DNA of 64,000 nucleotides, taken from the NCBI GenBank assembly GCA_030739585.1, contig JASLYX010000002.1, positions 1-64,000 of the forward strand, given 5' to 3'. Made by a program: the position numbers and the translations under genes. This document shows positions 34,927-46,548 of this stretch, piece by piece. The first letter of the stretch is position 1. Each line of letters starts with the position of its first letter. Below the pieces are notes generated by a model. The model did not search any database. It was given only the letters and a program-made list of their open reading frames with translations, and was not told the DNA's origin. Source of the DNA: Candidatus Bathyarchaeota archaeon (GTDB taxonomy: Archaea > Thermoproteota > Bathyarchaeia > TCS64).

Positions 34927-35949
34927 TTGGTGATGCGGATGATCCCTGAGAAGGTGAAGGTGAGCACCGGTACTGCGGGGCTGCTTGGGCTGGATAAAAT
35001 CAAGCTCAAGGTCAAACCAACCACTGCATATCTTATGACTCACACCGAGGAAGGATGCGTGGGCAACTGTAAATTCTGTCCACAGGCTAGAGAGAGCCCC
35101 TCCGACAACTCCCGGCTATCCCGTGTTCTCTGGCCCACATACTCCGGCAAGGCTGTTCTTGAGGCTCTAGGCCGAGCATCGGAACGGGAGCTGATGCGCA
35201 TCTGTATCCAGGCCATAAACTACCCCGGATATTTTGATGACGTCCACGGTCTCCTCCAGGGAATCGCGGCTGTCACGGATATCCCTGTCTCCTTGGACAC
35301 GTGTCCCCTCACCGGGGACCAGTTGCGGAAGTTGAAGAAGGCGGGCCTGAATAGGATAGGCATTCCCTTGGACGGGGCGACCCCTGGGATCTTCAACAAG
35401 GTAAAGGGGTCGGAGGTTAAGGGACCTTTCAGCTGGGGTGAACACATGAAAGCCTTGTCAGAGGCGGTGGAGATCTTCGGGCGGGACCGGGTGATGTCTA
35501 ATCTGATCATCGGCCTTGGGGAGACTGAGGAGGAGGCGGCGAAATCCATACAGGATCTGATGAATAGAGGTGTCCAAACTAGCCTCTTTGCATTCACACC
35601 AATCCGTGGTACCCTACTCCATAAGCATCCCCAACCTGCCTTGGACATGTACAGGCGGGTCCAGATCGCCCGGTATCTGATTACCCTCAGGCACGTCCGA
35701 TTCGATGACATGAAGTTCGACGCCAGGGGGACCATCATTGGCTTCGGGGCCGATCCAAGCGTATTCTCCGGGGTCCTCGAGAAGGGGGATGCTTTCTGTA
35801 CCAGCGGCTGCCCCGGATGCAACAGGCCCTTCTACAACGAGAGACCCTCGGCCCCATTGTTCAATTATCCCCGAGACCTCACCCCCGAGGAGGCGGTAAC
35901 GGAGGCCGAGCGGCTAGGCCTGAGGAATTGGATACCCCCAAGAAACTAG
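34927..35949 (+). CDS. radical SAM protein, archaeal lipoyl synthase-like (LipS type)
   Basis: 340 residues. The radical SAM cluster motif is EEGCVGNCKFCPQA (CxxxCxxC), and a second cysteine group FCTSGCPGCNRPFYN near the C-terminus suggests an auxiliary iron-sulfur cluster, as needed for sulfur insertion. Its overall shape resembles biotin-synthase-like proteins shown in Thermococcus to form a two-protein lipoyl synthase (LipS1/LipS2). It lies 13 bases before a LipM-like octanoyltransferase, and a second radical SAM gene is convergent beyond that. Role as lipoyl synthase subunit is inference from motifs plus context; which of the two subunits is not certain. Confidence 0.8.
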   Translation: MVMRMIPEKVKVSTGTAGLLGLDKIKLKVKPTTAYLMTHTEEGCVGNCKFCPQARESPSDNSRLSRVLWPTYSGKAVLEALGRASERELMRICIQAINYPGYFDDVHGLLQGIAAVTDIPVSLDTCPLTGDQLRKLKKAGLNRIGIPLDGATPGIFNKVKGSEVKGPFSWGEHMKALSEAVEIFGRDRVMSNLIIGLGETEEEAAKSIQDLMNRGVQTSLFAFTPIRGTLLHKHPQPALDMYRRVQIARYLITLRHVRFDDMKFDARGTIIGFGADPSVFSGVLEKGDAFCTSGCPGCNRPFYNERPSAPLFNYPRDLTPEEAVTEAERLGLRNWIPPRN

Positions 35950-35962
35950 GAGGTATAAAATC

Positions 35963-36799
35963 ATGGAAAGCCTCACCGATCCACCACCTGCGACTTGGAG
36001 GCTGATCAACACTAAGTGGTCTGACGGCGCTATGAACATGGCCATTGACGAGGCCATTATGCTTTCGGTGGCTAAGAATCAGTCCCCGCCCACGCTGAGG
36101 TTCTACAGATGGGAGCCTCCCTGTGTCTCGGTGGGGTACTCTCAATCGATCCGTCATGAGATTGACCTGGAACGGTGCCGGGAACGGGGGTACACCTGGG
36201 TGCGACGTCCCACCGGGGGCCGGGCGTTACTCCACATTGACGAGTTGACCTACAGCGTTGTAGCCCCCCAAGAGGAGCCCCGGGTAGCGGGGGACATTAT
36301 AACTTCTTATCGCGGACTGAGCCTGGGGCTGGTGGAGGGTCTCAGGACCCTCCACGGTGGAGTCGTCCAGGCGGACCGTATAGAGACCGGGAAGGAGGCC
36401 GAGAAATCTGCTGCATGTTTTGACCTGCCTTCCCATTACGAGGTGACGGCGTACGGGAAAAAGCTCATCGGTAGCGCCCAAGTCCGCAAGAATGGGGTAG
36501 TACTACAGCATGGCGCATTGCCATTGGAAGGGGACGTGTCGCGCCTTGTCGACGTCTTGGCCTTGCAAGAGCCAGACAGAGTTACACTTCGAGGTAAACT
36601 CTTAGAGAGGGCAATAGCTTTGGATGAGGTGGTAGGTCGAGTGGTGCCCTTTAATAAAGTGGCAAAGGCTCTAACTGTTGGCTTTAGTAGGGCTTTAAAT
36701 ATAAACTTCACTACAGGGAAGCTGATCCCCTTTGAACGAGAGATGGCTAAGCGTCTCATCATACGATACACTGGGGACGAGTGGACGTTCGTCAGATAG
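35963..36799 (+). CDS. lipM: LipM/LplA-like octanoyl or lipoyl transferase
   Basis: 278 residues of the biotin/lipoyl ligase fold. RRPTGGRALLH is the lipoate-ligase signature, and SAACFDLPSHYEV, GKKLIGSAQVR and VLQHGALPL match the LipM type, whose Cys in ACF carries the acyl group. It would transfer octanoate (from ACP or another donor) to lipoyl domains such as GcvH or E2 proteins, for the LipS proteins to thiolate. An LplA role on free lipoate is the alternative. Confidence 0.85.
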   Translation: MESLTDPPPATWRLINTKWSDGAMNMAIDEAIMLSVAKNQSPPTLRFYRWEPPCVSVGYSQSIRHEIDLERCRERGYTWVRRPTGGRALLHIDELTYSVVAPQEEPRVAGDIITSYRGLSLGLVEGLRTLHGGVVQADRIETGKEAEKSAACFDLPSHYEVTAYGKKLIGSAQVRKNGVVLQHGALPLEGDVSRLVDVLALQEPDRVTLRGKLLERAIALDEVVGRVVPFNKVAKALTVGFSRALNINFTTGKLIPFEREMAKRLIIRYTGDEWTFVR

Positions 36800-36823
36800 A
36801 AAGAGTCGTTCTTTCCTAAATAT

Positions 36824-37831
36824 TTAGGATACCTTTCTTATGGTCAGGTATTCGAGTTGCTTAGGTATAGCGCAGCAGCCGTCTAGATGCTTCACAATGA
36901 ATCCTTCGTTGTGAGCGTACTTAACCGTGGATCTGGAGGGGAGGACGACCCTGTCGGCACCTGCCTGAATCGCGAGGCGCTCTTCCAGAGTTTTCTCAGC
37001 TTTTGGGCGCATACATCCGATGGCGATGCTTGTGTCGCTGTGCATCAACCTCGCCGCGGCCACTGTCTTGGCTATGACCTCGACAGAGGGAGGTGTCACG
37101 TTCTCCATGCCTGTCCCCCTAGTTGGGACGAGTGCAATGATGACAATAATGTCTGGGTTGATGTTTCCGATGATCTCTAGCGCCCTAGCTTCTCCCCTGA
37201 TCTCCCCAAAGTGGAGGCCAGCGCATACGTGAGGGATAAGGTAAGAGACTTGGGCGTCCCTTAAATTGATGAGAGTTTCGGCGTAGTCCTGGACTGTTGC
37301 GTCCAGCCCATAGACCTTTTTGATGGTATCGTTGCTCCCGACGACATCCATAGAGACAACGTCAGCTCCTGTGGAGGCTATTTCCTCAGCCTGTCGGGGG
37401 TTCAGAAGTCCTGTGTGGAGGTTTACTATGAGAGATGTATTTTCCTTCACCCACGTGATCGCGCTGAGGAACTCTTCGAGGGGAACATGCCCTCTTGGAT
37501 CCGAGCCGCCGCTCACAAGGACCCCTACCCCGCCCTCCGCATCAAGTCTGGAGCAGTAGTCCTTGAGCTTCTTTGGGGTATCTGTGTTATCCATCCCTGA
37601 GAGGAAGTGGCCATTGCAGTGCTCACATTTCAGCGCGCACTTGGCGCCTGTAATCGAGACACTGGGGAACCGGGGCTGGGGGATAAGGAATCGGAGCTCC
37701 CGCCCAAGCCGTTCATCCCTCAGGGCTCCAGCGATCTCCAGCATGCTCCCGGGGAGACACTCTAAGGATAGTATGCTCTCCGCCTCATCGACAGAGATAT
37801 TTCCCTTCTTCAACACGTTCAGATTCAGCAA
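36824..37831 (-). CDS. radical SAM protein, second lipoyl synthase-like subunit
   Basis: 335 residues. Cluster motif KCALKCEHCNGHF, VSGGSDPRG near the SAM site, HVCAGLHFGEI in the barrel and a CC pair near the C-terminus (DGCCAIP). Resembles the other half of the archaeal LipS1/LipS2 pair. It is convergent with lipM with a 24-base gap. The trio radical SAM, LipM and radical SAM is a compact lipoate-assembly locus. Confidence 0.78.
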   Translation of the reverse strand: MLNLNVLKKGNISVDEAESILSLECLPGSMLEIAGALRDERLGRELRFLIPQPRFPSVSITGAKCALKCEHCNGHFLSGMDNTDTPKKLKDYCSRLDAEGGVGVLVSGGSDPRGHVPLEEFLSAITWVKENTSLIVNLHTGLLNPRQAEEIASTGADVVSMDVVGSNDTIKKVYGLDATVQDYAETLINLRDAQVSYLIPHVCAGLHFGEIRGEARALEIIGNINPDIIVIIALVPTRGTGMENVTPPSVEVIAKTVAAARLMHSDTSIAIGCMRPKAEKTLEERLAIQAGADRVVLPSRSTVKYAHNEGFIVKHLDGCCAIPKQLEYLTIRKVS

Positions 37832-40962: not shown

Positions 40963-43900
40963 ATGAGAAACGCCATGTTTATCACAGGAGGGTTAAAACA
41001 GCCTATGAATTCGGCTTCCCTATCCAAAGTTCTAAGCAGAGTCGACGATTGGAGGCTCAAACTCATTGATCTGAGCAGGAGGAATCGCTTAGTCAACTTC
41101 AGGCCCACCCGCAGCTCTAATCTTGAGTTTTGTAGACCTAGTATCAACCCTTTCTTCGAGAGACTCGTTGTAAAGGATAAATCTTGGTCGATCTGGGAGC
41201 CCCCTGAGGACTCTGGGGAACCCCCACGCAGGATCCGCCCCCGGAAAACCCAGATTGTTCCCAAAGAGATCAAAGCCGCCCGAGTACGTCGGGTCCTTAG
41301 GAACCTCTCGAGGCGCTCCGCCTCTGAGTACCGAGAGAGAGGGGTCCGGATCCTCTACGTCGCCTTCGGGACGCTCAGCTGGCGCGAGGTAGGGTCTAAC
41401 CAGCCCCTTGTCTCCCCCATAGTCCTTACCCCCGTGGAGCTCACCCGGAAGACCAGCAGGGATCCTTACACGGTCCAGATTCCCGCCGTTGAGGACGAGG
41501 CTATTCTCAACCCTGCTCTCAGGCTCAAGCTTCACTTAGAGCACAAGATCGAGCTCCCCCCGCTCTTCGACTGGGACGAAAACTCCCTTACAACCTACCT
41601 CGCTGAGGTCCAAGAGACTATCCGAGAGACCGGCTGGGAGGTAGAGGACCGGGTTCATATGGGCCTATTTTCGTTCCACAAGCTGGTAATGTACCAGGAC
41701 CTTATGGATAATGTGGATACCATCATAGAGCACCCCTTAATCCAAGCCCTCGCCGGAGTGAATCCCCCCCCTGTAGCGAGGGGGCCTCTGCCCAAAGCCG
41801 GGGAGCTGGACAACCTCGACCCCAAGGAGGTCTTTCAGGTTCTGGACGCTGACAGCAGCCAGCAGCTCTGCATCCAGTATGCTCTTGCAAGGCAGAGCTT
41901 TGTGATGCACGGCCCCCCAGGCACCGGAAAGAGCCAGACCATCGCGAACATGATCGGCGAGTTTATCGCCCGGGGAAAGACTGTCCTTTTCGTCAGTGAG
42001 AAGATGGCTGCTCTTGAGGTTGTTTACAACCGTCTCCGAGCTCGGAACCTGGAGGATTACTGCCTTGAGTTACACAGCCACAAGGCCAACAAACGGGACG
42101 TGGTGGCCGAGCTCAACAGGGCCCTCAACGAACACCTCAAAACTCAGGGCGCGATGAACGAAGAAGACCTAGAGCGCCTTATCGCTAGGCGGAATCAACT
42201 CAACGATTATGTGAGTGCACTTCACAACCGCAGAGAGCCCATCGGGTATAACCCCTACCAGATCTTTGAGGCTTTAGTAAGCCTTGAAGAGATCCCTCTT
42301 TTTCCAACAGGATTCAGGGCCTTCGACTCCTTGGACCAGAGGAAGCTCCTTGAACTCGAGGACAAGGTCAGGAGGCTCTCCAATGCTTGGAGGGTTGTCG
42401 AAGAAGGAGATATCTTTCCATGGAATGGGTGCATCGAGGAAAATTACACCCTAGAGACACGGTCTCAATGGATTCACCTCTTAGAGAACACTATAGCGAC
42501 GGCAAACGATATGGAAATAGCCTCCGAAGAATACGCTCAGATCCTGGGACTAGAAATCCCAGGCACGATAGAGGAGTACGAGCGTCTCCAGAAGATTACT
42601 GAGCTCATTAGCGCGACACCAAGGCCCCTCCGGAAATGGCTTGTAGACGCAGACCTTCGGACTATACAGTCTCTCGTTGAGAAGAGCCGGAAGCAGTGGG
42701 GCGAGTACTGGGCCTGGGTGGGGGCCCTCGAAAAGGATTACGATACTAGACTGATCCTCATACCCCCAGGAACTGCGGGCAGGATCGAGGAAGCTTGGGA
42801 GGGCCTCGCAGAGCTCCTCGCCCCGATATCGGAGGGTGACGGGGGTCTTCTCAAACACTTGCTGGGTCTGGAAGCCTTCCTGAGGAAGGTCTCGAAGAGG
42901 CTCAAGGAGCTGAAGGGGAGCGCCGAACAGATCTCCTCATTCCTTGGGTTGAAGGGAGAAGTTGAAACCCTAGAGAAGGTCACTTTTATTTCCAAGCTCG
43001 CCCGAATGTGCAAGACTGAGTTCAGGCCCATGAGGTCATGGCTCGACCGGAGTGGCCTAAATGAGGCCACACAGCTTTTGGAGACACTAAAGAACGATCA
43101 CTCTCATAGGGAAAAGCTTAGGGAGAGGCTTAAAACCTATGATGACGCTGTCTTAACCCTGGAACTCGACGAGATAATCGAGTACTTGGAGGGCCCCGGT
43201 AGCTCTTTCTTCAGGGTATTGATGCCCAGCTACTACAGGGCCAAGGGAGCCATCTCCAAGGTGACACAGGACGGGGGGTTCCCAGCGACGGCCGTCGAGG
43301 ATCTCAAGGCTGCGCGAGAACTCCGCGGAATTCTAGAGAAGCTGGACGCAAACCTCGAGAAGGCTAGGAAGACTTTGGGCATCTACTACAAGGGTAAGGA
43401 CCCCGACTTTGATGGAGCAGAGGTAGCCCTCAAGAACGCCTCCAATACCCTCCGATTAGCCGGGACCTCTAGAGCCCCAAAGACCCTTAGGGACAATCTA
43501 TCCGTATACTCGGAACCGAACGAGACCCTCCTCCGGTACAGTGAAGCGCTGTCTGGATCCCTTACCGAATGGAGAGCTGACGAAAGGAAGCTACGAGGGG
43601 TGCTTCCCTCGAAATTAATGACGAATTCTGGGGTCTCTATGCGGAAAAGTGGCTTCCGGGAGGTGGAATCTTGGGCGATGGACTCGTTGGAAAAGCTTGT
43701 AAACCTTTCTAGGTTATCATCGGGAGCGTTGGCAACACGTCTCCACAAGCACCCGGCGACCTTTGTGGGTCTAGTGAAAGACCTGAGGACCGTAGAGGAA
43801 ATCCAGAGATTCGAGGATGAGGTGGACAGCCGCTCTGAGGAGATGAGGGACATTTTTGGCCTACTCTATAGTGGCCTCAGGACGGACTGGAACGGGGTCC

Positions 43901-46548
43901 TCGAGGCACTGGGGTGGACTCGGACGCTAATCAGAGCCCTCCCCCGAGGGGTCTCTGAGAGGTTAGCTCAGGGCATCTCTCAGGATGGACCCCCTCTTCC
44001 CCCTGATCCCCTTATCGGGGAGAGGTGGAGCAATATTTCTCTATCCTTGGACTCCATCGATGACCGTTTCGAGAGAGAGCTTTGGCCTGAGCCAAGGGGA
44101 CGTTTGACTCTTGAAAAGGTGAGAACAAGTCTAGGTGTCCTTCGATCCAGGATTGATGACCTCCAGACCTGGGTGGACTTTAACACCCAGGAGACCGAGA
44201 TCAGGAATGCAGGGCTCGGGCAATTCCTTGAGATCCTCATAGCCGAGAGGGTCGAGAGGGATCGTCTTGTAGACGTCTTCAGGAAGGCCATGTACCAGGG
44301 GCTCTTGGATGCCGTATTTAAGGAGGATGCAGTCCTCAAGAATTTTAGGGGACAGGACCATGAGCAGCTCATCAAGGATTTCCAGGATCTGGATCTCCGT
44401 TTCATTCAATTGACCTCCCAAAGGGTGATCGAGATCGCCAACGAGCAAAAGCCCCAGGGGGTCTTCGTTCAAGCCCCAGACTCGGAGATCACTGTGTTGA
44501 TGCGGGAGGCTGCGAAGAAGCGTCGCCATATGCCCTTGAGGTACTTATTCGAGCGTATCCCGAATCTTGTTAGGAGGTTGAAACCCTGCCTTATGATGAG
44601 CCCTATCAGCGTGAGCCAGTTTCTGATCCCCACGGGGGCCCAATTCGATCTCGTGGTCTTCGATGAGGCCTCTCAGATCTACACCGAGGATGCTGTGGGC
44701 TCCATCTACCGGGGGGATACCCTAGTGATCACCGGGGATCCGAAGCAGCTTCCGCCCACCCCCTTTTTTCAACATACTATAGATGATGACTTTGACTGGG
44801 ACGAGGAGGGCTACGAGTTTGACGTCTTCGACAGCGTCCTCGATGAGTGCATGAGTATCGGCCTCCCTGTCAGGATGCTAAAATGGCATTATCGTAGCAA
44901 ACATGATTCCTTGATCAGCTTCAGCAACGACAGATTTTACAACGGCAATCTCGTGCTTTTCCCCTCCTCAAGGATGGACTCAGACCTAGGTCTCGAGCTA
45001 ATCCACGTTAAAGACGGCCTTTACGACAGAGGGGGCAGGAGAAATAACGTGAGGGAGGCCGAAGTAGTGGCTGATCTCGTCTTCGAGCACTTCGAGAGGC
45101 ACCCTGAGAAGACACTTGGCGTGGTCACTTTCAGTTTGAGCCAGATGAATACCGTGCAGGACGCCGTGGAAGTCCGGCTCCAGGAGCATCCCACGTTCGA
45201 GAAGTTCTTCGTAGAGGATAGGCTCGACGGATTCTTCGTAAAGAATCTAGAGAACGTTCAGGGTGACGAAAGGGACGTCATGATCTTTAGCGTTGGATAT
45301 GGCTACGACACAAATGGCAAGATAACGATGAACTTCGGTCCTCTCAACAAACAGGGGGGAGAGCGTCGCCTTAATGTAGCTGTAACCCGTGCCCGGGAGA
45401 AGGTGGTTCTTGTGAGTAGCATCAAATATGATGACATCAACCTCCAGGCAACACAGGCCGAGGGGGTTCACAGTCTTCATCATTATATGAGGTTTGCTGA
45501 GAGGCGCCCCCGGAACCTTAAGGACGTTGAGGCCCAAGAACATATCCTCATCTCCCAGTTGGACGAAAAGGTTGCCGAGGAGGTGAATCGCCTAGGTTAC
45601 AAGACGGTGCCCTTGGTGGGCTCCGGGGCGTTCAGGGTGGACCTAGGGGTTTTAGACCCGGCTGATCCGAGTAGGTTTATCCTGGGCATCATGTGCGACG
45701 GGGAGAACTATGTGACCGCTGACACAGCCCGGGACAGGGATCGCCTTAGAATCCAGGTCCTGGAGAACCTTGGGTGGAGGATCCACCGTATCTGGGCTCC
45801 TGACTGGGTGCAAAGGCAGGATACCGAGGCGCAGAGGCTAGCGAAGGCTCTCAAAGATGCCAACGAGGAACCCAGACAGGAAGCGACGAAAAAGGCCTTG
45901 AAACCTCCCACCACGCAAAGGAACATCCTTAATCAGGTGAAGGTAGTGGACACCCCCCCAGGGGAGCTTCCTGGTGTGGAGCCCTATAGGTTTGTGAAGC
46001 TGAAACCCGATTACCTTTTCACTAGATACTCTCCGGATCACAGGGAGCGATATTTGAGGGAGTACCACTCCGAAGTGAGGCGGCTCCTACCCCAGCTGGT
46101 TAAAGGGGAGGGGCCCATCCACGTGGAGCTCGCGTTTAAGAGGATGAACAACGCCTTTAGGCTGAGCCGGGCAACGAACGCATTTAGAGTGGCCTTCCAG
46201 GAGGAGGTAGAGGTACTCGAGAAAGATCAAATTGAAATGAAGGGCGATTTCCTCTGGCCAAAGGGAATTGATTCAGTCCGGGTGAGAGCCCCGGTAGATG
46301 GCGTTACCGAGAGCTTCAGGCCCATAGAGTACATCTCCCCTGAGGAGATACTAAAGGCGTTGACTATGGTCACCGGGTACTCCTTTGGGATAAGGAAGGA
46401 GACTCTACTCAATGAGACAGCACGCCTCCTCGGATTCAAGCGGATGGGACCTAAAATTCTGGAAGCCTTGCAGCTAATCTATCATAGGGCTCTTAACTCC
46501 GGAAAGATAGGTCTAGAGGACAAACTCGTGGTCCTCAAGAAGCGTTAA
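40963..46548 (+). CDS. giant DUF4011-type SF1 helicase with C-terminal nuclease
   Basis: 1861 residues, single gene. Domains in order: DUF4011-like N-terminus (about 20-270; WRLKLIDLSRRNRLVNF), helicase core half 1 with Walker A HGPPGTGKSQTIAN near residue 316, a long helical insert of about 800 residues, half 2 with DEASQIY (about 1233), GDPKQLPPT and VTRAREKVVLVSS (about 1473), a PD-(D/E)xK-like MTES_1575-type nuclease (about 1545-1625; FRVDLGVLD, CDGENY, ARDRDRLRIQVLENLGW), then a DUF3320-like end. Such proteins recur in bacterial defence islands and act alone in some reports; a DNA-repair role is equally possible. No defence neighbours here. An inner ATG at codon 15 (MNSASLSK) is an alternative start. 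Confidence 0.9.
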   Translation: MRNAMFITGGLKQPMNSASLSKVLSRVDDWRLKLIDLSRRNRLVNFRPTRSSNLEFCRPSINPFFERLVVKDKSWSIWEPPEDSGEPPRRIRPRKTQIVPKEIKAARVRRVLRNLSRRSASEYRERGVRILYVAFGTLSWREVGSNQPLVSPIVLTPVELTRKTSRDPYTVQIPAVEDEAILNPALRLKLHLEHKIELPPLFDWDENSLTTYLAEVQETIRETGWEVEDRVHMGLFSFHKLVMYQDLMDNVDTIIEHPLIQALAGVNPPPVARGPLPKAGELDNLDPKEVFQVLDADSSQQLCIQYALARQSFVMHGPPGTGKSQTIANMIGEFIARGKTVLFVSEKMAALEVVYNRLRARNLEDYCLELHSHKANKRDVVAELNRALNEHLKTQGAMNEEDLERLIARRNQLNDYVSALHNRREPIGYNPYQIFEALVSLEEIPLFPTGFRAFDSLDQRKLLELEDKVRRLSNAWRVVEEGDIFPWNGCIEENYTLETRSQWIHLLENTIATANDMEIASEEYAQILGLEIPGTIEEYERLQKITELISATPRPLRKWLVDADLRTIQSLVEKSRKQWGEYWAWVGALEKDYDTRLILIPPGTAGRIEEAWEGLAELLAPISEGDGGLLKHLLGLEAFLRKVSKRLKELKGSAEQISSFLGLKGEVETLEKVTFISKLARMCKTEFRPMRSWLDRSGLNEATQLLETLKNDHSHREKLRERLKTYDDAVLTLELDEIIEYLEGPGSSFFRVLMPSYYRAKGAISKVTQDGGFPATAVEDLKAARELRGILEKLDANLEKARKTLGIYYKGKDPDFDGAEVALKNASNTLRLAGTSRAPKTLRDNLSVYSEPNETLLRYSEALSGSLTEWRADERKLRGVLPSKLMTNSGVSMRKSGFREVESWAMDSLEKLVNLSRLSSGALATRLHKHPATFVGLVKDLRTVEEIQRFEDEVDSRSEEMRDIFGLLYSGLRTDWNGVLEALGWTRTLIRALPRGVSERLAQGISQDGPPLPPDPLIGERWSNISLSLDSIDDRFERELWPEPRGRLTLEKVRTSLGVLRSRIDDLQTWVDFNTQETEIRNAGLGQFLEILIAERVERDRLVDVFRKAMYQGLLDAVFKEDAVLKNFRGQDHEQLIKDFQDLDLRFIQLTSQRVIEIANEQKPQGVFVQAPDSEITVLMREAAKKRRHMPLRYLFERIPNLVRRLKPCLMMSPISVSQFLIPTGAQFDLVVFDEASQIYTEDAVGSIYRGDTLVITGDPKQLPPTPFFQHTIDDDFDWDEEGYEFDVFDSVLDECMSIGLPVRMLKWHYRSKHDSLISFSNDRFYNGNLVLFPSSRMDSDLGLELIHVKDGLYDRGGRRNNVREAEVVADLVFEHFERHPEKTLGVVTFSLSQMNTVQDAVEVRLQEHPTFEKFFVEDRLDGFFVKNLENVQGDERDVMIFSVGYGYDTNGKITMNFGPLNKQGGERRLNVAVTRAREKVVLVSSIKYDDINLQATQAEGVHSLHHYMRFAERRPRNLKDVEAQEHILISQLDEKVAEEVNRLGYKTVPLVGSGAFRVDLGVLDPADPSRFILGIMCDGENYVTADTARDRDRLRIQVLENLGWRIHRIWAPDWVQRQDTEAQRLAKALKDANEEPRQEATKKALKPPTTQRNILNQVKVVDTPPGELPGVEPYRFVKLKPDYLFTRYSPDHRERYLREYHSEVRRLLPQLVKGEGPIHVELAFKRMNNAFRLSRATNAFRVAFQEEVEVLEKDQIEMKGDFLWPKGIDSVRVRAPVDGVTESFRPIEYISPEEILKALTMVTGYSFGIRKETLLNETARLLGFKRMGPKILEALQLIYHRALNSGKIGLEDKLVVLKKR

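What the first reader, a model, noticed from the sequence alone, without database searches (positions are those of the whole stretch)
34927..37831. Compact archaeal lipoate-assembly locus
Two radical SAM proteins resembling LipS1/LipS2 flank a LipM-type octanoyltransferase with its catalytic Cys. This would be a complete non-canonical de novo lipoate pathway; no LipA or LipB is present. A second cysteine cluster in the first protein fits sulfur insertion.
Basis: partly seen in the sequence, partly recalled or inferred. Interest (0 to 1): 0.6.

Follow-up and report, generated by a model that had tools for sequence, protein, structure and literature searches.

The report
Archaeal lipoate-making locus with LipM
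These three genes of an uncultured archaeon (Bathyarchaeota) very probably make lipoate, a sulfur cofactor, directly on its carrier protein by a recently discovered route; the locus is ordinary in kind, but close relatives carry a different enzyme (a ligase) at the same spot, so this genus seems to have changed how the fatty chain is attached.

Summary
Window 34927-35949(+) encodes LipS2, 35963-36799(+) a LipM-type octanoyltransferase with Cys152, and 36824-37831(-) LipS1. Both radical SAM proteins pass the curated NCBIfam equivalog cut-offs, and their cluster-ligand cysteines are conserved. The genome is a 95%-complete Ca. Bathyarchaeota assembly. It has GcvH, GcvT and GcvP, and by search no LipA, no LipB-type protein and no acyl carrier protein.

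The kind of system is already known: LipS1/S2 plus LipM in archaea was reported in 2023, with LipM's acyl donor left unresolved. What I add:
(1) In other genera of the same family this locus reads lipS2-lplA-lplB-lipS1. In all three genomes of this genus where the gene was found, a Cys-bearing LipM replaces lplA-lplB. Replacement by an outside LipM fits best, but in-place conversion of LplA is not firmly excluded.
(2) LipS2 has Asn where the proposed fourth auxiliary-cluster ligand (His) normally sits, across this family.
(3) The genome carries a second, divergent LipS1/S2 cassette with an Lpl(AB)-DUF116 fusion. In relatives it lies beside a GcvH paralog and Hdr-type or other redox genes. The window locus is therefore not the organism's only lipoylation route.

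The parts
34927..35949 (+). lipS2: radical SAM protein expected to insert the first sulfur (C8 of octanoyl). CX3CX2C at C44/C48/C51; auxiliary-cluster ligands C93, C295, C298; Asn192 at the column that is His in most relatives. Real start probably ATG 34939 (GGTGAT at 34929-34934 upstream).
   Evidence: NF053743 LipS2 327.9 bits > cut-off 270; invariant Cys columns in 131 LipS2 homologues; coordinates and start region read directly
35963..36799 (+). lipM-type octanoyltransferase: PF21948 fold, RRPTGGRALLH...ELTYS motif, Cys152 in a loop insertion (EKSAACFDLPSHYEV, about residues 134-159) absent from the LplA ligases, Lys167. GGAGGT at 35949-35954 upstream of ATG 35963.
   Evidence: PF21948 120 bits; alignment with bacterial LipM and neighbouring LplA; tree
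36824..37831 (-). lipS1: radical SAM protein expected to insert the second sulfur (C6). CX3CX2C at C65/C69/C72; auxiliary-cluster ligands C273, C319, C320; conserved His201.
   Evidence: NF053742 LipS1 259.8 bits > cut-off 230; C273 and His201 in 66 of 66 homologues, C319 and C320 in 62

Best explanation
The locus builds lipoate on the glycine-cleavage H protein. LipM takes an octanoyl group from a thioester donor onto its Cys152 (donor not ACP; perhaps octanoyl-CoA, inferred) and passes it to the lipoyl lysine of GcvH. LipS2 then puts sulfur on C8 and LipS1 on C6, each sacrificing an auxiliary [4Fe-4S] cluster and using SAM radical chemistry. In this genus LipM occupies the place that the two-subunit ligase LplA-LplB holds at the same locus in sister genera, so the attachment step has switched from an ATP-dependent ligase to a covalent acyl transferase while the sulfur-insertion pair was inherited vertically. 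Shown here: gene identities, ligand residues, the Cys-bearing insertion, absence of LplB, LipA and ACP by search, presence of GcvH/T/P, and gene order in relatives. Taken from the literature on relatives: reaction order and cluster sacrifice. Inferred: the donor, GcvH as the substrate, and the direction of the gene switch.
For: Curated family scores. Ligand residues match those mapped by mutagenesis in T. kodakarensis LipS1/LipS2 (PMC9585515). LipM carries an insertion with SAACFD shared with LipM proteins encoded next to lipS1-lipS2 in Synergistota genomes, and groups with them at 99/98 support in a tree built without the insertion columns. lplB lies directly downstream of lplA in five same-family loci (L042-L046) and is absent from the three loci of this genus. 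LipS2 and LipS1 group with the same family and order. GcvH with ESVK lysine motif next to GcvT; GcvP. No LipA, no ACP. In G024 a canonical GcvH lies next to the equivalent lipS2-lplA-lplB-lipS1 locus.
Against: No characterised LipM sequence (e.g. B. subtilis) could be fetched for direct comparison, and NCBIfam gave no LipM model hit. No acyl donor was identified. LipS2 has Asn192 at the column inferred to be T. kodakarensis His178, whose replacement by Ala strongly lowers activity. The genome's second Lpl(AB)/LipS1/S2 cassette could also modify GcvH. No clear dihydrolipoyl dehydrogenase reached its cut-off.
Confidence: 0.85

Rival explanations
1. The middle protein is an LplA-type lipoate/octanoate ligase that has lost LplB or borrows it, so the locus still works as the usual archaeal LplAB-LipS1/S2 system, salvaging free octanoate or lipoate with ATP.
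For: Same position as lplA in sister genera; 37-40% identity to those LplA proteins; best NCBIfam score is to LplA large subunit, but 110 bits against a 480-bit cut-off; an LplB domain exists in the genome inside the Lpl(AB)-DUF116 fusion.
Against: No free-standing lplB in the genome or at the locus; Cys-bearing insertion and RRxTGGRAxLH...ELTYS motif shared with LipM proteins and absent from the neighbouring LplA proteins.
Confidence: 0.12
2. LipM arose in place: the resident lplA lost its lplB and gained the Cys loop, instead of being replaced by a LipM from elsewhere.
For: Literature proposes that LplA-to-LipM conversion happened several times (PMC10332631). In a reduced tree the clade LipM + family LplA is not rejected (p-AU 0.07; with order-level LplA 0.18; 0.40 without Synergistota LipM).
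Against: Full tree: LipM groups with Synergistota LipM (99/98) and the in-place clade is rejected (p-AU 0.014). The roughly 19-residue Cys-bearing insertion is shared with bacterial LipM, and those columns were not used in the tree.
Confidence: 0.3
3. The radical SAM pair does something other than lipoyl synthesis (a biotin synthase-like or PylB/HmdB-like reaction).
For: Distant similarity to BioB, PylB and HmdB, as expected for the superfamily; Asn192 instead of His in LipS2.
Against: Scores exceed the LipS1 and LipS2 equivalog cut-offs, while BioB scores 45-47 bits against a cut-off of 225; auxiliary-cluster cysteines of both proteins are conserved; linked to an octanoyl/lipoyl transferase.
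Confidence: 0.03

Closest known systems
LipS1/LipS2 lipoyl synthase of Thermococcus kodakarensis (TK2109/TK2248; PMC9585515)
   Same: Both radical SAM proteins with CX3CX2C and three auxiliary-cluster cysteines each; LipS1 also keeps the conserved His (H201 here, inferred equivalent of H159).
   Different: LipS2 has Asn at the column inferred to be His178. Here the genes are clustered with lipM; in T. kodakarensis the relevant genes do not form a cluster and a two-part LplAB ligase is used (PMC10332631).
Archaeal lipS2-lplA-lplB-lipS1 gene clusters (Tanabe et al. 2023, PMC10332631)
   Same: Same gene order and orientation, found in the sister genera of this organism (L042, L043, L046, L180, L184).
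   Different: lplA-lplB replaced by a single Cys-bearing lipM.
lipS1-lipS2-lipM clusters of Synergistota genomes (G343, G319, G327, G291, G335)
   Same: LipM next to LipS1/S2; shared SAACFD insertion; LipM 37-41% identical.
   Different: Gene order lipS1-lipS2-lipM on one strand; the LipS1/S2 proteins belong to another branch; bacterial hosts, which are expected to have acyl carrier protein (not searched).
Bacillus subtilis LipM-LipA pathway (Cronan, PMC7253636)
   Same: Cys-dependent octanoyl transfer to GcvH is the inferred first step.
   Different: Sulfur insertion by LipS1/S2 instead of LipA; no ACP found; sequence not compared directly.

Membership tests
LipS2 family lipoyl synthase | Score above the curated NF053743 equivalog cut-off | tested here: met
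   327.9 bits against 270
LipS2 family lipoyl synthase | Radical SAM CX3CX2C motif and three auxiliary-cluster cysteines (T. kodakarensis C85, C276, C279) | tested here: met
   C44/48/51, C93, C295, C298; all invariant in 131 homologues (PMC9585515)
LipS2 family lipoyl synthase | Residue-level trait, not family-defining: His178 as proposed fourth auxiliary ligand | tested here: not met
   Asn192 at this column; His in 122 of 131 homologues, Asn in 8 (including the window and QDN_3), which are the family members plus one further named bathyarchaeal contig, L063; G270 has Asn too.
LipS1 family lipoyl synthase | Score above the curated NF053742 cut-off | tested here: met
   259.8 bits against 230
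LipS1 family lipoyl synthase | CX3CX2C, auxiliary cysteines (C230, C276, C277 in T. kodakarensis) and conserved H159 | tested here: met
   C65/69/72, C273, C319, C320, H201
LipS1/LipS2 lipoyl synthase | Catalyses sulfur insertion into octanoyllysine | not testable with these tools
   needs assay
LipM octanoyltransferase | Cofactor-transferase fold (PF21948/PF03099) | tested here: met
   120 and 51 bits, both over cut-off
LipM octanoyltransferase | Active-site Cys loop distinct from LplA | tested here: met
   C152 in a loop insertion shared with Synergistota LipM and absent from neighbouring LplA
LipM octanoyltransferase | No LplB domain or partner | tested here: met
   none at the locus; only LplB in the genome is inside the separate Lpl(AB)-DUF116 protein
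LipM octanoyltransferase | Phylogenetic grouping with LipM rather than LplA | tested here: inconclusive
   99/98 with Synergistota LipM in the full tree, p-AU 0.014 against in-place origin; weaker in a reduced set (p-AU 0.07-0.40)
LipM octanoyltransferase | ATP-independent transfer from a thioester donor to GcvH | not testable with these tools
   needs assay
LplA-LplB lipoate ligase | LplB accessory subunit encoded with LplA | tested here: not met
   absent
LipA lipoyl synthase | Score above TIGR00510 cut-off | tested here: not met
   LipS2 19.8 bits against 310; no LipA in the genome
Biotin synthase BioB | Score above TIGR00433 cut-off | tested here: not met
   47 and 46 bits against 225

The most novel reading that the evidence does not exclude
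Within a single bathyarchaeal genus the ATP-dependent ligase LplA-LplB of an inherited lipS2-lplA-lplB-lipS1 locus was exchanged for (or converted into) a Cys-dependent LipM in a genome without detectable acyl carrier protein. Archaeal lipoyl assembly would then start from a non-ACP octanoyl thioester such as octanoyl-CoA.
Probability: 0.45. Interest if true: 0.55.

Novelty: new member of a known kind. Interest (0 to 1): 0.4.

Why it matters
The pathway itself is published. What this locus offers is a clean natural comparison: sister genera with the same LipS1/S2 pair and the same gene order but a ligase (LplAB) in one and a transferase (LipM) in the other. That makes two open questions directly testable: which acyl donor archaeal LipM uses without ACP (called unresolved in PMC10332631), and whether LipM arises from LplA by losing LplB or moves in from outside. 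The Asn in place of the proposed His ligand in LipS2 is also a natural test of the auxiliary-cluster model.

Tried and rejected
Biotin synthase or other radical SAM families: rejected on scores. Solved-structure sequence search gave only distant BioB/RlmN/PylB-type hits for the radical SAM proteins and LplA hits for LipM. Plasmid tblastn for bacterial LipM gave LplA-type ligases rather than LipM (L193, L196 and L197 grouped together on a long branch away from LipM in the tree; small ligase-like genes just upstream), so it was no use as a LipM reference. A file of the whole genome was not available. 'Foreign replacement is proven' was rejected as a claim after the reduced-set tests. No structure prediction was run: the folds of these families are known, and the tools give no coordinates for checking cluster geometry.

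Full report
What is there. The window lies on contig C2 of a 1.69 Mb, 28-contig genome (95% complete, 2.7% contaminated). Its nearest named relative is Ca. Bathyarchaeota isolate QDN_3 (LipS2 78% identical). The first two are 13 bp apart with a strong GGAGGT ahead of the second; the third converges on them with a 24 bp gap.

Identity. The first protein is LipS2 (NF053743, 327.9 bits, cut-off 270) and the third is LipS1 (NF053742, 259.8 bits, cut-off 230); BioB and LipA models score far below their cut-offs. The middle protein has the LplA/LipB catalytic fold (PF21948, 120 bits).

Active-site residues. In T. kodakarensis, mutagenesis assigned the auxiliary-cluster cysteines as C85/C276/C279 (LipS2) and C230/C276/C277 (LipS1), with H178 a likely fourth ligand in LipS2 and H159 essential in LipS1 (PMC9585515). 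Aligned against 131 LipS2 and 66 LipS1 homologues, the window proteins keep all the cysteines (LipS2 C44/48/51, C93, C295, C298; LipS1 C65/69/72, C273, C319, C320) and LipS1 H201. LipS2 has Asn192 where 122 of 131 homologues have His. Eight sequences have Asn: the window, QDN_3, five sister-genus loci and one further bathyarchaeal contig; a third genome of this genus has Asn too. The match of this column to H178 rests on spacing and on its being the one strongly conserved His column, because the T. kodakarensis sequence could not be fetched.

The middle gene is LipM-like. Aligned with LplA proteins from sister genera and LipM proteins encoded beside lipS1-lipS2 in Synergistota, it shares with the latter an insertion of about 19 residues holding SAACFD (Cys152) and the RRxTGGRAxLH...ELTYS motif, and lacks the LplA form. 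No LplB is found at the locus. The only LplB-like domain in the genome is inside a different, fused protein.

Pathway context. The genome has GcvH next to GcvT (C3), GcvP (C8) and a second GcvH-like protein (C14). By search it has no LipA, no acyl carrier protein and no 2-oxoacid dehydrogenase E2 lipoyl domain. No dihydrolipoyl dehydrogenase reached its cut-off. Absences are for a 95%-complete assembly. The likely target is therefore GcvH of the glycine cleavage system. The octanoyl donor remains unknown; octanoyl-CoA is a guess.

Comparison with relatives. LipS2 is common in the class: 108 of 151 sampled genomes exceed the cut-off. In other genera of the same family the locus reads lipS2-lplA-lplB-lipS1 with the same strands, and lplB directly follows lplA in L042-L046. 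A search of 257 class genomes with the window LipM found close matches (65-80%) only in two other genomes of the same genus; all further matches were 54% or less, those over the full length at most 45%, and those inspected were LplA- or other Lpl-type proteins. A fourth genome of the genus, 70% complete, had only a weak match.

How the switch happened. Window LipS2 and LipS1 group with their own family and order, whereas LipM groups with Synergistota LipM (99/98) in a tree that left the insertion columns out; holding it with family LplA is rejected at p-AU 0.014. In a reduced data set the rejection fades (0.07, 0.18, and 0.40 without Synergistota). I favour replacement by a LipM from outside over in-place conversion, roughly 70:30. 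Bacterial LipM was sampled only from Synergistota, so no donor can be named.

Second cassette. At C2:205.7-210.5 kb (locus L008:7709-12509) the genome carries lipS2b-lipS1b-Lpl(AB)-DUF116 fusion-flavoprotein (geranylgeranyl-reductase family). LipS2b and LipS1b are 32% and 38% identical to the window pair and fall below, though LipS1b only just below, the curated cut-offs. In relatives this cassette lies near a GcvH paralog and Hdr/hydrogenase-type genes (L047, L051, L059) or other redox genes (L053). In this genome the paralog lies by itself next to GlcD- and HdrD-like genes. A plausible reading is two lipoylation routes with different clients, akin to the published sHdr-LbpA systems; that is inference.

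Known versus new. LipS1/S2 with LipM in archaea, including Thermoproteota, was reported by Tanabe et al. 2023, which calls the archaeal LipM substrate unresolved and the lipS2-lplA-lplB-lipS1 order typical (PMC10332631). The finding is a correct new member of that kind. The same-locus ligase/transferase contrast and the His-to-Asn change are the parts I did not find described in the papers I read.

Noticed in passing
own genome C2:205.7-210.5 kb (L008:7709-12509): Second, divergent lipoyl-assembly cassette: lipS2b (CX8C instead of CX2C at the C-terminus), lipS1b, an Lpl(A+B) ligase fused to DUF116, and a geranylgeranyl-reductase-family flavoprotein. The fusion forms one clade in Bathyarchaeia and Asgard archaea; no paper in the searched library holds both 'DUF116' and 'lipoate'.
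   Followed up: partly
L047, L051, L053, L059: In relatives the DUF116-ligase cassette lies beside or within a few kb of a GcvH paralog; L047, L051 and L059 also carry HdrA/HdrBC-, MvhD- or hydrogenase-type genes, and L053 GlcD/HdrD-like genes. This suggests a dedicated lipoylated carrier for an Hdr-type system.
   Followed up: partly
L009:2821-6107 (own genome C14): The GcvH paralog with ESGKWVGP lysine motif sits next to a GlcD-like FAD oxidase and an HdrD/GlpC-like iron-sulfur protein.
   Followed up: partly
L064:5032-5844, L067:10529-11341, L074, L094, L100, L155: Many Bathyarchaeia have an Lpl-like protein with an invariant Cys (NCPNL) in the same loop region as the LipM Cys but at another position, with no LplB found in the fetched stretches; possibly another type of Cys-dependent acyltransferase.
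   Followed up: partly
window 35500-35502 (LipS2 codon 192): Asn replaces the nearly universal His at the proposed fourth auxiliary-cluster ligand, in the LplAB-type as well as the LipM-type loci of the family.
   Followed up: partly
window 40963-46548: 1861-aa protein, by eye a large SF1-type helicase/nuclease with Walker-like GPPGTGKS motif; not examined.
   Followed up: no
L061/L041 genome (G151: C13:132344-132949): QDN_3 has an additional LplA-like protein of about 363 aa outside the lip locus.
   Followed up: no
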